From: Clostridiaceae bacterium
GTDB taxonomy: Bacteria; Bacillota; Clostridia; Saccharofermentanales; UBA5734
Assembly (NCBI GenBank): GCA_012523135.1
Contig: JAAYJD010000284.1
Location: forward strand, 1-32,645
Direction: 5' to 3'
DNA: 32,645 nucleotides
Shown piece by piece: positions 263 to 15,825 of the stretch. The translations under genes and the position numbers were made by a program. Numbering within the stretch: the first letter of the stretch is position 1; every line of letters starts with the position of its first letter. Under the pieces are notes generated by a model. The model worked only from the letters and a program-made list of their open reading frames with translations, made no database searches and was not told where the DNA came from.

Positions 263-287
263 TCAGCCGCTGCGGCTGATGTTTTTC
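262..287. terminator. Palindromic hairpin at the end of the EH-like gene
   Basis: Bases 262-280 form an 8-bp perfect stem (ATCAGCCG/CGGCTGAT) with a three-base loop. On the plus strand it is followed by GTTTTTC; on the minus strand the stop codon of the 263-1549 gene lies in the stem and no T tract follows. It may act as a 3' stabilising or weak terminating hairpin for the minus-strand operon. Confidence 0.35.
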
Positions 288-1549
288 AGCTGGCTGCGGC
301 TGGCGATTCTTTTCTTGCTGAGGCAAAAATCCATGAACATGGCGCTGGTGGCCAGGCCGGTCTCGTCAAAGAGCAGGCCGACAGGCCCCTGGGTGCTGCT
401 TCGGCTGACGGCGTCTTCGACCCGGCGGTGAGGCACCTGCGGATTGGCCGGGTTGAGATCGTCCTGCGACTGCTGGAAATCAAAAGGCAGGATTTCCGGA
501 TCCGAAAGCTCGTAATAGACCGCAAATAACGGCTGGCGGCGATCGTCGGCGATCAAAAAACCAGGAAAGCGCAGCAGCAACGTGTCATCGTCCCACTGCT
601 CGATGCTTTCGACAAAACGGGCATAATGCAAGTAAAAGCGCGCCTTGGCCTTGTTTTTGCGACAATGGCTGCCGATCGTAGCGGCCGTGATCCAGTCTCG
701 GAAACGGCGCAAGTCACGGCTCTTGACCTGGCTCCAGATCGGATGCCCCCGCTCAGGATCGCCGAATTGGCGGTATATCTCCTGGTAATAGCGGTTGGTC
801 GTCTCTGGTGGAAGATCCTTGAGCTGGAACAGGCGATGGATGAGCGCGGCCTGCCGGTCGGGGCTGGCCTTCGCCAGCGCCTGCCGGAACTGCAGATGGC
901 CGCCCGCGTACAGACGCGCGTCGCCGGCGATGAAACAGCGGGCCAGAAGCGACGCCCCAAAAGGCATGTCCGACCGGACGGCGAAGCTGGTCATGAACTG
1001 CTCCAGGGGCACGTTGCGCTGCACCAGGACTTTCAAGAGCCTGTCCTCGAACTGACGGGCGTCCGGGGCGACCAGGTTCGAGATCAGGGGTGGCTGGTTC
1101 TGGCCGCGCCTGGACCGCACCGATGTCTTCTGACTGTGCTGCTTGATGTCGAGAATACTGCACAGGATCGCCAGACCGCGAGCAACTGGTGCAGACGGGT
1201 AGACCTGCTGGAAGACAGACCAGCCGTAGCGGTAGAGAGACGGGCAGGCGCGTTCGCGGATAATCAAGTACAGCTTTTCATGGTAATGCTCAAAACGGGC
1301 ATCGGCCGGAACCGGTTCAGACAAAAGCGGGAAGATATGGCGCAGATCGCGGCTGGTCAGCTGGCGGGCCAAATCAATAATTGCCTCGCCCCTTGCCGAT
1401 GTCTCGATGATCACCGCCAACCGGTCCCTGTCCTCCGTATCCGCGGGCCTAAGCAGTTCTTCCGGCAGCGGAAGCTGACGGCGGACCGCTTCCAGGCTCT
1501 CGGCTAACCGCCCTGCCGGGGCTGGCGCGCTGTGGGACAGCTCGCTCAT
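263..1549 (-). CDS. EH-signature (ZorC-like) family protein, putative
   Basis: This is a 428-residue soluble protein with no signal peptide or membrane segment. The C-terminal half has a pattern I associate with the EH-signature domain found in Zorya ZorC proteins: a GDPERGHPIW stretch (about residues 263-272), FRDWI (293-297), and RFYLHYARFVESI (304-316) followed by a probable beta-rich segment. The N-terminal half looks mainly helical and has no motif I recognise. Its ATG overlaps the stop codon of the membrane protein gene by four bases (ATGA), so the two are translationally coupled and probably work together. The family assignment is from memory of conserved positions and is not certain. 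If it is wrong, this is an unknown conserved partner of a MotA/ZorA-like protein. No helicase or nuclease motif is seen. Confidence 0.5.
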   Translation of the reverse strand: MSELSHSAPAPAGRLAESLEAVRRQLPLPEELLRPADTEDRDRLAVIIETSARGEAIIDLARQLTSRDLRHIFPLLSEPVPADARFEHYHEKLYLIIRERACPSLYRYGWSVFQQVYPSAPVARGLAILCSILDIKQHSQKTSVRSRRGQNQPPLISNLVAPDARQFEDRLLKVLVQRNVPLEQFMTSFAVRSDMPFGASLLARCFIAGDARLYAGGHLQFRQALAKASPDRQAALIHRLFQLKDLPPETTNRYYQEIYRQFGDPERGHPIWSQVKSRDLRRFRDWITAATIGSHCRKNKAKARFYLHYARFVESIEQWDDDTLLLRFPGFLIADDRRQPLFAVYYELSDPEILPFDFQQSQDDLNPANPQVPHRRVEDAVSRSSTQGPVGLLFDETGLATSAMFMDFCLSKKRIASRSQLKNISRSG

Positions 1550-3189
1550 GACCCGAAGTGGGCGCCGCGCTGGATGGCAGACGGCAAGGCATCGACGGCA
1601 TCCTGGATTTCCGCGGCGGTCTGCACCAGACGGTTCACGATTTCGGACAGACTCTCGTCGAAGCGGTCCAGCGTCTGCTGTACATACGCATCAGAACCTT
1701 GCGCGAACCGGTCGACCGTTTGACCTAATGTCGTGTTGACATTCTGCAGCTGGCTGCCGATGCTGGCCGTGTTGGCGGCCACCGCGGCTGTTTCCTTGTG
1801 AACTTGCTGCAGCAGCATATCGATCGTGCCGTGCAGCTGCTGGCTGAACTGCTCGGCTTGCTCCTGCAAATTGACGCCCTGCTGGCGGGCCCCTTCCTGC
1901 TGCGCGGCGGCCGCGTCGCGGATATCGCCGGCCATCTGAAGCGCCTGCCGGGTGGTGTCCGTCAGACCATGGGTGCCATCCTGGAGTTGCTTGGCAAAAT
2001 AGCTGAGTGACTGGGCCAGGTTCTGCTCGTTGCCCTGGAACGCATCGGTCAGCTTCTGGCTGGTATCCGCCAGGGCCCGGGTCGCTTCCTGCAGACGGGA
2101 CAGGTCGGTGCTCAATGTTTCGTGTGTCGCCTGCTGCCCCTGAACCGACTGACTGATCGCGTTTTGGATGTCTGCCGTCTGCTGCCGGGTTGTCTCCATG
2201 GCGCGCATGGCCAGCTCGACATAGTTTTTGACGTCAGCCATCAAGGTGCCCATCTGGGCAATCTCGCGGTTGATCGGGTGCATGTGCGCGGCCAGCTGGG
2301 CAGACAGCGCGCCGGCAAAGCGTTCAGCCAGATCCTGCATGCCCTGTTCCTGGCGTTCAGTCAGGGTCTGGGCGAGCTGACCCAGCATGGATGTGGATTG
2401 CTGCAAAGAAGGCGCGACGCTTTCCGTCAGAACTTGTTCGACACTGCGCCGGATTCCGTCCGCCATATCGCTTTCCGCCAGCCGCGAGGTCACCTCGGTG
2501 AAATTGTTGAGGCCATCTTGCATCTTGTGATCGTATTGCAGGTACGCGTCGACGAGCTCAGCCGTGCCGATGGAATCGTTGAAAACCGGCAGATGGCGGC
2601 AAAATGTTTGGTAAAAGGCCTCGGTCTCTTCGTTGACCAGCTGGTTCATGTGCCAGGCGGTCGCCGCAGCCGGCAAAGCGGCGCCCACGGCGGTCAGCAC
2701 GGGGAGCAGGATGAGCAGCAGGCCGAAACGAGGGTCCGGCAGCGGCAGGGGCTGCTGGATCAGCCAGGCGGCCAGGGAGGCCAGGATGCCGATGGTCAGG
2801 ATGCGGGCCGCCGGCATCAGGCTGATCGAGCTGCGCTGCGCGGGCGACAGCCAGACGCGGACCGGCAGCGCCTGGCGCGGATCTGGCAGCCAGCGCCCCT
2901 GGTACAGCTGGACACTGTCTTCCTTCATGCGCTCGAGCGGCCGGACAACGGCTTGCGGCCAGGTTCGGCGGGCCGCCGCGACAACCGCTGGAAAATGGTC
3001 AAGGCTCCGACCCGGCAAGTCTTCGATCTGGTCTGTCAGTTCGGCCAGCGGCACCAGGAAGCTGCGCCTGAGGCGCACCGCGAACAGCCAGCTGACGATC
3101 GCCAGGGCGATCATCAGGAGCGGGACCAGCACTGAGATCAACCAGTGCAGGATATGCAGGTTGGCAATTTCCAGGATGACAAGAGCCAT
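1546..3189 (-). CDS. ZorA/MotA-like membrane protein with long helical tail
   Basis: The product has 547 residues. Membrane segments are visible near residues 16-39, 127-145 and 153-178. They are followed by HMNQLVNEETEAFYQ and then about 340 residues of almost unbroken, Gln/Ala/Thr-rich helix (residues 200-547), probably a coiled-coil cytoplasmic tail. This order of short loop, membrane hairpin with a PVLTAVGAALP segment, and very long tail is the layout of ZorA, the MotA/ExbB-like stator of the Zorya phage-defence system. The tail also has the texture of chemoreceptor-like helices, so a receptor or cell-envelope scaffold is the alternative. A GAGGAGG ribosome binding site sits before the ATG. 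The gene lies 20 bases after an aminopeptidase gene and overlaps the EH-like gene. No ZorB (MotB/OmpA-type) gene is present beside it. Confidence 0.55.
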   Translation of the reverse strand: MALVILEIANLHILHWLISVLVPLLMIALAIVSWLFAVRLRRSFLVPLAELTDQIEDLPGRSLDHFPAVVAAARRTWPQAVVRPLERMKEDSVQLYQGRWLPDPRQALPVRVWLSPAQRSSISLMPAARILTIGILASLAAWLIQQPLPLPDPRFGLLLILLPVLTAVGAALPAAATAWHMNQLVNEETEAFYQTFCRHLPVFNDSIGTAELVDAYLQYDHKMQDGLNNFTEVTSRLAESDMADGIRRSVEQVLTESVAPSLQQSTSMLGQLAQTLTERQEQGMQDLAERFAGALSAQLAAHMHPINREIAQMGTLMADVKNYVELAMRAMETTRQQTADIQNAISQSVQGQQATHETLSTDLSRLQEATRALADTSQKLTDAFQGNEQNLAQSLSYFAKQLQDGTHGLTDTTRQALQMAGDIRDAAAAQQEGARQQGVNLQEQAEQFSQQLHGTIDMLLQQVHKETAAVAANTASIGSQLQNVNTTLGQTVDRFAQGSDAYVQQTLDRFDESLSEIVNRLVQTAAEIQDAVDALPSAIQRGAHFGS

Positions 3190-3209: not shown

Positions 3210-4331
3210 TCAGGGGTTCAGTGCAGCCAGTTCCGGCGGCACAAACAGGCCATCCTTGCGGACCAGCCGATCGTCAAACCAGATCTCGCCGCCGCCGTTG
3301 CCGGAACGCTGGATCTGGACCAGATCCCAGTGAATGGCGGACGAGTTGCCGTTGGGCGCGTCGTCATAGCAGGCGCCGGGCGTCAGATGGAGGGAACCGG
3401 CGATTTTTTCATCGAAAAGCGTGTTGCAGGTCGCATCGTGAATCAGGGGATTGAAGCCCAGGGCGAATTCGCCGAGATAGCGGGCACCCGCATCAGTATC
3501 CAGAATCTGGTTCAGCTGACTGGTGTTTTCATCTGCCGCCGCCTCGACGATGCGCCCCTCGGAAAACGTCAGGCGGATGTTGTGGTAAAGCTGCCCCCAG
3601 AATAATGAAGGCGTGTTGAAGGAGATGGTGCCGTTGGCCGAGTTGCGGACAGGGGCCGTAAAGCATTCGCCGTCAGGCAGGTTGTATTCGCCGCAGCAGG
3701 GAACAGCCGGGATGCCCAGGATGGAAAACGACAAGTCTGTTCCCGGAGCCAGGATGCGGACCCGATCGGTCTTTTCCATCAGGGCCTTGAGCGGCTGAAC
3801 CGCGCGCTGCATCGCCACGTAGTCGAGTGAGGCGGTCTGCAGGACGAAATCCTCGTATTGGCCGTAGGGCATGTCGGCCCGCTGGGCCCTGGCCTGGGTC
3901 GGGTATTCGAACAGGACCCAGCGCCGCTGGTTGATCACCAGGTCCTTGAAAGGCCTGGCACAGGATGCTTCCAGCTGGCGGACCGCCGGATCGATGCGGC
4001 CGAGTTCGGCGTCGTTCACGTAGGCGCGGATGACGATATCACCGACCAGGTTTTCAAAGCGCCTCAAGTCTGCCGCCGCCTTATCCTTGAGAAAGGCCTC
4101 TGTCCGACCGCCGTCGTCCGGATCGTAAAGCTCCAGCAGCTGGCGCGTGATTTCGGCATCGGTCCAGTCCACCTGGGCCAACGCGCCGGCCTGAGCCGCT
4201 TCGCGCAGCAGTTCCTGCACCAGCGGCCGGGCGGTGATATCCGCCGTGATGTGAAAAGCGTCCCCTTTTTGGATCTTCATCGAGTGGTACAGCATGAGTT
4301 TGGCCAGTGATGCCAGTCTTGAATCGCGCAT
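3210..4331 (-). CDS. M29-family metallo-aminopeptidase (AmpS/PepS-like)
   Basis: This cytoplasmic exopeptidase removes N-terminal residues from peptides using a two-metal centre. The 373-residue protein carries the family blocks EYNLPDGECFTAP, GTISFNTPS, GEFALGFNP, LFDEKIAGSLHL and NSSAIHWDL, which hold the metal-binding Glu, His and Asp residues of M29 peptidases. The reading frame stays open well upstream, but the ATG at 4331 has a strong AGGAGG seven bases before it and starts the protein at the usual point for the shorter clostridial members. An extended -10 promoter lies 32 bases upstream of the start. The next gene begins 20 bases after the stop, so the aminopeptidase and the ZorA-like/EH-like pair are probably cotranscribed. 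Whether the three are functionally linked is unknown. Confidence 0.9.
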   Translation of the reverse strand: MRDSRLASLAKLMLYHSMKIQKGDAFHITADITARPLVQELLREAAQAGALAQVDWTDAEITRQLLELYDPDDGGRTEAFLKDKAAADLRRFENLVGDIVIRAYVNDAELGRIDPAVRQLEASCARPFKDLVINQRRWVLFEYPTQARAQRADMPYGQYEDFVLQTASLDYVAMQRAVQPLKALMEKTDRVRILAPGTDLSFSILGIPAVPCCGEYNLPDGECFTAPVRNSANGTISFNTPSLFWGQLYHNIRLTFSEGRIVEAAADENTSQLNQILDTDAGARYLGEFALGFNPLIHDATCNTLFDEKIAGSLHLTPGACYDDAPNGNSSAIHWDLVQIQRSGNGGGEIWFDDRLVRKDGLFVPPELAALNP

Positions 4332-15170: not shown

Positions 15171-15219
15171 ATATGCCGGAAAGCCTCCCGATGCAGCCAA
15201 TTTGAGGAGGAAGACGTCT

Positions 15220-15825
15220 ATGAGTAAACCTGTTGGAACCGCACAACCCGCAAAATACCGTGAAGCCATCCTGGCGACCGCCACCGGCGGCATGGCGATC
15301 GCGCTGGGCACGCTGCTTTCGGTCTTCACGGTCATCAAGATGCCCCAGGGCGGCTCGCTGACCATCGGCTCGATGCTGCCGGTGATCTTCTGCGCCCTGG
15401 CTTTCGGAACCGGCTGGGGCTTTGGCATCGCCGCCGTGTACGGCGTGCTGCAGTTCATCATCGCACCTTTCATCGCCCACTGGGCCTCGATCGTGCTGGA
15501 CTATCCGGTCGCTTTCGGCCTGCTGGGCCTGGCCGGCCTTTTTGCGGCGCCTGCCGCCGAGCGCCAGGATGAGCGTAACATCCTTAAGCGGGTCGGACAG
15601 ATTCAGCCCTGGCGCATCATCATTGCGGTGGTCGTCGCCATGCTGGGCCGTTTCCTGGCCCATGTCCTGTCCGGTGTCGTTTTCTTTGCTTCTTATGCCG
15701 AAGGCAAGAATGTCTGGCTGTATTCGCTGGGCTACAACGGCTCGTACATGGTGCCCGAAATGGTGGTGACCAGCATCCTGCTCTTGCCGCTGGCCCTCGT
15801 CTTCAGGCCACGCCGGAGATCCTGA
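15220..15825 (+). CDS. thiT: Thiamine-specific ECF transporter S component
   Basis: ThiT binds thiamine in the membrane and works with the general energy-coupling module (EcfAAT), which is encoded elsewhere. The 201-residue protein has about six membrane helices and the family motifs PQGGSLTIGSMLPV, VLDYPVAFGLLGLAGL and GRFLAHVLSGVVFFASYA, the last followed by WLYSLGYNGSYM. The W, Y and N residues of these segments line the thiamine pocket in known ThiT proteins. The ATG at 15220 is chosen because GAGGAGG at 15204-15210 lies nine bases before it; an upstream in-frame TTG is within that binding site. It is preceded by a TPP riboswitch. Confidence 0.95.
   Translation: MSKPVGTAQPAKYREAILATATGGMAIALGTLLSVFTVIKMPQGGSLTIGSMLPVIFCALAFGTGWGFGIAAVYGVLQFIIAPFIAHWASIVLDYPVAFGLLGLAGLFAAPAAERQDERNILKRVGQIQPWRIIIAVVVAMLGRFLAHVLSGVVFFASYAEGKNVWLYSLGYNGSYMVPEMVVTSILLLPLALVFRPRRRS

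What the first reader, a model, noticed from the sequence alone, without database searches (positions are those of the whole stretch)
263..3189. ZorA-like and EH-signature-like gene pair without ZorB or effector
A membrane protein with an N-terminal helix, a membrane hairpin and a tail of about 340 helical residues is translationally coupled (ATGA overlap) to a soluble protein with W/F/Y pattern blocks (GDPERGHPIW, FRDWI, RFYLHY) that I recall from the EH-signature domain of Zorya ZorC. Seen: topology, coupling and the motif blocks. Known: Zorya needs ZorA and the peptidoglycan-anchored ZorB plus ZorC/D or other effectors. Inference: this may be a reduced or ancestral relative, acting in envelope sensing or phage defence with a missing or distant ZorB. 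It sits behind an aminopeptidase in an otherwise housekeeping region.
Basis: partly seen in the sequence, partly recalled or inferred. Interest (0 to 1): 0.72.

Follow-up and report, generated by a model that had tools for sequence, protein, structure and literature searches.

The report
Motor-less Zorya-derived core gene pair
Two neighbouring genes in this anaerobic bacterium descend from parts of Zorya, a motor-like bacterial virus-defence machine, but they have lost the motor and are inherited as ordinary chromosomal genes; their relatives sit inside type IV pilus operons, which suggests a defence machine turned into a cell-envelope or pilus part.

Summary
The pair is real: A (1546-3189 -, 547 aa) and B (263-1549 -, 428 aa), ATGA-overlapping. 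It is nevertheless not a Zorya system. No ZorB or MotA/ExbB profile match was found in the draft genome, ion-path residues and the E/H signature are gone, and the pair is inherited vertically at family-specific housekeeping loci (62 of 188 genomes of the order; 36/38, 11/12 and 15/23 in three families). Tail tip and tail base of A are its best-kept parts. The nearest relatives outside the order (11 of 11 loci, five families) lie inside type IV pilus clusters. Five keep a ZorB, always with the essential Asp replaced by Asn; six have none. Seven true Zorya loci keep Asp and ZorD. The trees run Zorya, pilus-linked with dead ZorB, pilus-linked without ZorB, window. Best reading: a non-motor membrane scaffold derived from Zorya, whose A tail holds B, with the pilus as ancestral context. 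Its present role is inferred, not shown; defence is less likely.

The parts
1546..3189 (-). Gene A, ZorA-derived membrane protein, 547 aa
   Evidence: ORF; family in 55 aligned relatives; hhalign to ZorA type I 94%, E 1.1e-7
2650..3147 (-). Membrane domain of A: TM1 (res 15-38), cytosolic loop, TM2-TM3 hairpin (res 122-180); the ZorA channel Thr147/Ser184 positions are not conserved
   Evidence: hydropathy, alignment to ZorA
2317..2589 (-). Tail base of A (res 201-291), with PVF.D..G, YD..M and RQE.GM..LA..F motifs, strongly conserved
1579..1779 (-). Tail tip of A (res 471-537), FD..L.EI..RL..T..EI.DAVDALP, best conserved part, shared with pilus-linked A and Firmicute ZorA
263..1549 (-). Gene B, ZorC/EH-derived soluble protein, 428 aa, overlaps A by 4 bases
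   Evidence: ORF; hhalign to ZorC 94.8%, E 5.5e-8; to pilus-linked EH proteins 99.8%, E 3.5e-28
734..763 (-). GDPERGHPIW block of B
   Evidence: sequence; aligned to GDP..W of ZorC
623..703 (-). FRDWI to RFYLHY blocks of B (EH core)
   Evidence: sequence; aligned to F..W / FW.RY of ZorC
545..547 (-). Asp335 of B at the position of the ZorC signature Glu (E400); the signature His has no clear counterpart
3210..4331 (-). Upstream neighbour: M29-type aminopeptidase, conserved neighbour in the window's family (context, not part of the system)

Best explanation
The pair is a Zorya-derived module that is no longer a motor. A is a descendant of ZorA that keeps the membrane anchor and the long cytoplasmic tail. 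It has lost the ion-path residues and, in this lineage, its partner ZorB. B is a descendant of ZorC whose EH signature residues are gone. Inferred mechanism: several A subunits form a membrane ring whose bundled tails project into the cytoplasm, and the conserved tail tip holds B. The complex is then a passive scaffold at the membrane, not an ion-driven, peptidoglycan-sensing motor. The ancestral setting of this branch was the type IV pilus machine, with the module in one operon with pilB. In the window's order it became independent of the pilus and is kept as a vertically inherited envelope component. Shown here: homology, loss of motor features, vertical inheritance, pilus linkage of relatives. 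Inferred: ring formation, tail-tip/B contact, scaffold function.
For: Profile homology with controls; the B-family profile finds a true ZorC gene, E 2.6e-6. Two independent trees (B; membrane domain of A) give the same grouping: Zorya / pilus-linked with ZorB / pilus-linked without ZorB / window order. All 11 non-Zorya loci outside the order lie in type IV pilus clusters, in five measured loci 34-47 bp before pilB. ZorB there scores up to 4e-66 to PADLOC ZorB, yet all 5 have Asn where 15 of 15 Zorya ZorB have Asp; the same D-to-N change abolishes Zorya defence (PMC11890865). ZorB is absent from six loci; in L153 A and B are 38 bp apart. Loss of T147/S184 and E/H residues. Tail tip and base are the best conserved parts of A. 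Core-like distribution and family-specific synteny.
Against: No structure, interaction or phenotype is shown; AF2 models with two sequences were poor and fold searches empty. In the window's order most pairs are not next to pilus genes, and several genomes of family f4 keep the pair without a PilC/GspF gene, so a pilus role cannot be general. Asp-to-Asn as a derived state rests on Asp being shared by stators generally (own knowledge); the trees are midpoint rooted.
Confidence: 0.6

Rival explanations
1. A reduced or still working anti-phage system: A and B act without ZorB, or with a ZorB elsewhere, and sense or block phage.
For: Descent from Zorya components. Some f1 genomes lack the pair or carry a second pair.
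Against: No OmpA or MotA_ExbB profile match in the draft genome. Ion path and EH signature lost. Near-universal and at fixed housekeeping loci in f3 and f4. No hit for B in plasmids or for A's membrane part in phages. True Zorya loci in the phylum keep ZorB-Asp and ZorD.
Confidence: 0.15
2. A type IV pilus accessory also in the window organism: the pair serves the pilus-like cluster found on another contig.
For: All outside relatives are pilus-linked; the same family has pilus-linked members (G017, G011); the window genome has PilC-, PilT- and prepilin-like genes on contig C325.
Against: No PilM match in the window genome; several f4 genomes keep the pair without PilC/GspF, and f2 genomes have pilus genes without the pair.
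Confidence: 0.2
3. No real kinship: a generic three-helix membrane protein with a coiled coil next to an unrelated helical protein; the Zorya hits are coiled-coil noise.
For: Direct hmmscan hits of A lie in the tail and include apolipoproteins and JetC; B alone has no significant hit.
Against: Profile comparison of the membrane domain only, with reversed, shuffled and unrelated-protein controls; profile hit of the B family to a true ZorC; ZorB between A and B in five relatives.
Confidence: 0.05

Closest known systems
Zorya type I anti-phage system (ZorA, ZorB, ZorC, ZorD)
   Same: Homologous A/ZorA membrane domain and tail, homologous B/ZorC, same gene order A then EH protein
   Different: No ZorB, no ZorD, no ion-path residues, E/H signature lost, vertical core inheritance
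Pilus-linked ZorA-ZorB-EH and ZorA-EH loci found here (L086-L088, L152-L159)
   Same: Nearest relatives of both proteins; same motor loss; tail tip conserved
   Different: Lie in type IV pilus operons; five keep a ZorB with Asp-to-Asn
MotA/ExbB/TolQ stator family (PF01618)
   Same: Overall layout of one helix, cytosolic loop, helix hairpin, cytosolic extension
   Different: No PF01618 match in the window genome; no B-type partner with Asp

Membership tests
Zorya (ZorABCD/ZorABE) | ZorA with MotA/ExbB-type membrane domain | tested here: met
   Homology by profile only: 94%, E 1.1e-7, controls at most 1.4%; PF01618 itself gives no hit
Zorya (ZorABCD/ZorABE) | ZorB with OmpA/peptidoglycan-binding domain | tested here: not met
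   No ZorB between or after A and B; no OmpA-domain match in the draft genome
Zorya (ZorABCD/ZorABE) | Ion-path residues (ZorB Asp24/26, ZorA Thr/Ser ring) | tested here: not met
   T147/S184 positions variable or non-polar in the A family; no ZorB; in pilus-linked relatives ZorB Asp is Asn
Zorya (ZorABCD/ZorABE) | Effector ZorC/ZorD or ZorE | tested here: not met
   A ZorC-derived protein (B) is present, but no ZorD-like helicase/nuclease gene next to the pair in window or order relatives
Zorya (ZorABCD/ZorABE) | Anti-phage activity | not testable with these tools
   needs a plaque assay
EH_Signature (PF15611) / ZorC | Match to the family profile and presence of the Glu and His signature residues | tested here: not met
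   hmmscan: no match for B, two members weak; hhalign to ZorC 94.8% shows descent; Glu replaced by Asp and His without counterpart
MotA/ExbB/TolQ (PF01618) | Significant profile match and stator fold | tested here: inconclusive
   No Pfam match; AF2 model pLDDT 47.5, fold search without significant hit
Type IV pilus operon component | Gene lies in a pilus gene cluster | tested here: not met
   Not in the window; met in 11 of 11 outside relatives and in G017/G011

The most novel reading that the evidence does not exclude
A previously unrecognised branch of the Zorya family has been turned into a non-defence, motor-dead envelope scaffold: first built into type IV pilus operons with a ZorB that lost its ion-carrying Asp, then freed of ZorB and of the pilus, ending as a core gene pair in families of a bacterial order. 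It would be a stator-type assembly that works as a fixed tail-and-adaptor scaffold.
Probability: 0.5. Interest if true: 0.75.

Novelty: new variant of a known kind. Interest (0 to 1): 0.6.

Why it matters
Zorya is known only as a phage-defence motor. These loci show natural homologues in which the motor residues are gone while the cytoplasmic tail tip and the EH partner stay. That separates the motor from the tail-effector part by evolution and points to the tail tip as the contact for the EH protein. The tight linkage of Zorya-derived genes to type IV pilus operons in Clostridia-like bacteria was not found in the papers searched and makes a testable candidate for an unknown pilus component in Gram-positive bacteria.

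Tried and rejected
Direct PADLOC ZorA hits of A (1.6e-7) were rejected as proof: they lie in the coiled-coil tail and come with JetC, LmuB and apolipoprotein hits. The EH_Signature match in the window genome on contig C95 was rejected: it falls in a frame with three stops across mutL- and miaA-like genes. PDB sequence searches gave only coiled coils or nothing significant. A pilus-dependence test within the order (PilM, PilC/GspF against pair) did not show a positive link.

Full report
1. Observation. B carries the GDP...W, F..W and RFYLHY blocks. The pair is under purifying selection (dN/dS about 0.14 for both genes, between 0.07 for fabH and 0.24 for fabD in the same comparison).

2. What direct database searches say. 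Pfam, NCBIfam and PADLOC give no significant hit for B. For A they give only hits in the coiled-coil tail, mixed with apolipoproteins, JetC and others. PF01618 (MotA_ExbB) and PF00691 (OmpA) have no match anywhere in the window's draft genome (97% complete).

3. The family. B has a match in 36 of 58 genomes of the first draw. A survey of the order finds it in 62 of 188 genomes: 15/23 in the window's family f1, 36/38 in f3, 11/12 in f4, and in none of the f2 genomes listed. A lies next to B in every locus that is not cut by a contig end. In f3, B is shortened to its N-terminal helical part, so the EH half is dispensable there. The position is family- or genus-specific and housekeeping: fabH-fabD-aminopeptidase-A-B in f1, fabD-A-B or near prfC in f4, next to pyrG and/or ddl in most f3. 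This is the pattern of vertically inherited chromosomal genes, not of mobile defence islands; no match was found in plasmids for B or in phages for A's membrane part.

4. Kinship with Zorya. True Zorya references came from annotated plasmids (zorA1/B1/C, zorA2/B2/E) and from the phylum (L084, L085, L160-L164). Profile-profile comparison of the membrane domain alone gives A-family vs ZorA type I 94.2% probability, E 1.1e-7, score 55.6, collinear over 200 columns. Controls: reversed ZorA 1.4% (score 20.5), eight column shuffles at most 0.2%, seven unrelated proteins at most 1.1%. Single ZorA sequences without a profile score far lower (at most 38%), so the link needs the family profiles. B-family vs ZorC: 94.8%, E 5.5e-8, score 69.6; reversed 0.1%, shuffles at most 0.3%. 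The B-family profile also finds the ZorC gene of a real Zorya locus by itself (G215, E 2.6e-6).

5. The missing link: pilus-linked relatives. Outside the order, every non-Zorya relative found (11 loci, five families: L086, L087, L152-L155; L088; L156; L157 and L158; L159) lies in a type IV pilus cluster with pilB, pilT and further pilus genes. Spacing B to pilB is 34-47 bp in the five loci measured, so co-transcription is likely. Two genomes of the window's own family (G017, G011) also have the pair next to pilus or prepilin genes. Five of the 11 loci carry a ZorB between A and B, up to 4.1e-66 to PADLOC ZorB, with the OmpA domain kept. In all five, the essential Asp of the membrane helix is Asn; in all 15 Zorya ZorB compared it is Asp. 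In Zorya types I and II that same Asp-to-Asn change abolishes defence (Nat Commun 2025, PMC11890865). In L153, a close relative of L086, ZorB is gone and A and B are 38 bp apart.

6. Trees. A tree of B/EH proteins (46 rows) puts Zorya on one side (100/97) and the window order on one side (99/97), with the ZorB-bearing pilus group and then the ZorB-less pilus groups between them. A tree of A's membrane domain alone (37 rows, quick method) gives the same arrangement (SH-aLRT 97 and 98). Taking Asp as the ancestral state, because working stators share it (own knowledge), the series reads: active motor; pilus-linked with a dead motor; loss of ZorB; loss of pilus linkage in the window's order. Both trees are midpoint rooted, so direction is inferred.

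7. Which parts are kept. In A, the channel Thr/Ser positions are lost. The highest conservation is in the tail base (2.30 bits per column) and tail tip (2.33), against 1.37 to 1.62 for helix 1, loop and hairpin. The tip motif is shared with pilus-linked A and with Firmicute ZorA, e.g. L161. In B, the ZorC Glu (E400 in the 560-aa Klebsiella protein) is Asp in most members and the His has no clear counterpart; that these two are the signature residues is my own knowledge, the alignment shows only that they are conserved in ZorC. So evolution keeps the tail and its presumed partner and drops the motor.

8. Function. The best reading is a passive membrane scaffold: an A ring whose tails hold B. 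Ring formation, contact and purpose are inferred. A pilus role in the window organism is possible: contig C325 has PilC-, PilT- and prepilin-like genes, though no PilM match was found. It cannot be the general role in the order, because several f4 genomes keep the pair without any PilC/GspF match. In two f4 loci a DUF4015 glycosyl-hydrolase gene follows B directly, a weak pointer to the cell wall. Defence remains possible but is the less likely reading.

9. Limits. Structure prediction was run only with the window and one close relative and failed to give usable models. The assembly is a draft of 366 contigs, so absence of ZorB is likely but not absolute. The literature search covers open-licence papers only.

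Noticed in passing
L086, L087, L152, L154, L155: ZorB homologues in type IV pilus operons, all with Asn at the ion-carrying Asp position; a natural motor-dead ZorAB-EH set.
   Followed up: yes
L056 7900-11774, L050 8115-9647, L065 781-4014: A second, longer pair (A about 863 aa, B about 419 aa in L056) exists in some genomes of the window's family; in L050/L056 near tsaD-, uppP- and smpB-like genes.
   Followed up: partly
L047 9155-10696, L061 9562-11076: In family f4 a DUF4015 putative glycosyl hydrolase with an N-terminal membrane or lipoprotein anchor follows B directly.
   Followed up: partly
L051, L048, L066 and other f3 loci: B is cut down to its N-terminal helical domain behind a leader that is long and low-complexity in many members; the EH half is missing.
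   Followed up: partly
G000 contig C325, L143 7771-11767: Pilus-like cluster of the window genome: PilC-like, prepilin-like and PilT-like genes, without a PilM match in the genome.
   Followed up: partly
L122 1360-8299: Prevotella plasmid with a ZorA/ZorB-like pair flanked by FtsK-like translocase genes instead of known Zorya effectors.
   Followed up: no
L150 342-2979: Small mobilizable Psychrobacter plasmid (7.5 kb) carrying a compact Zorya type II-like set (short ZorA, ZorB, HNH protein).
   Followed up: no
window 15202-15825: ORF resembling an ECF-type vitamin transporter component (ThiT-like by eye); no riboswitch found by Rfam in the window.
   Followed up: no
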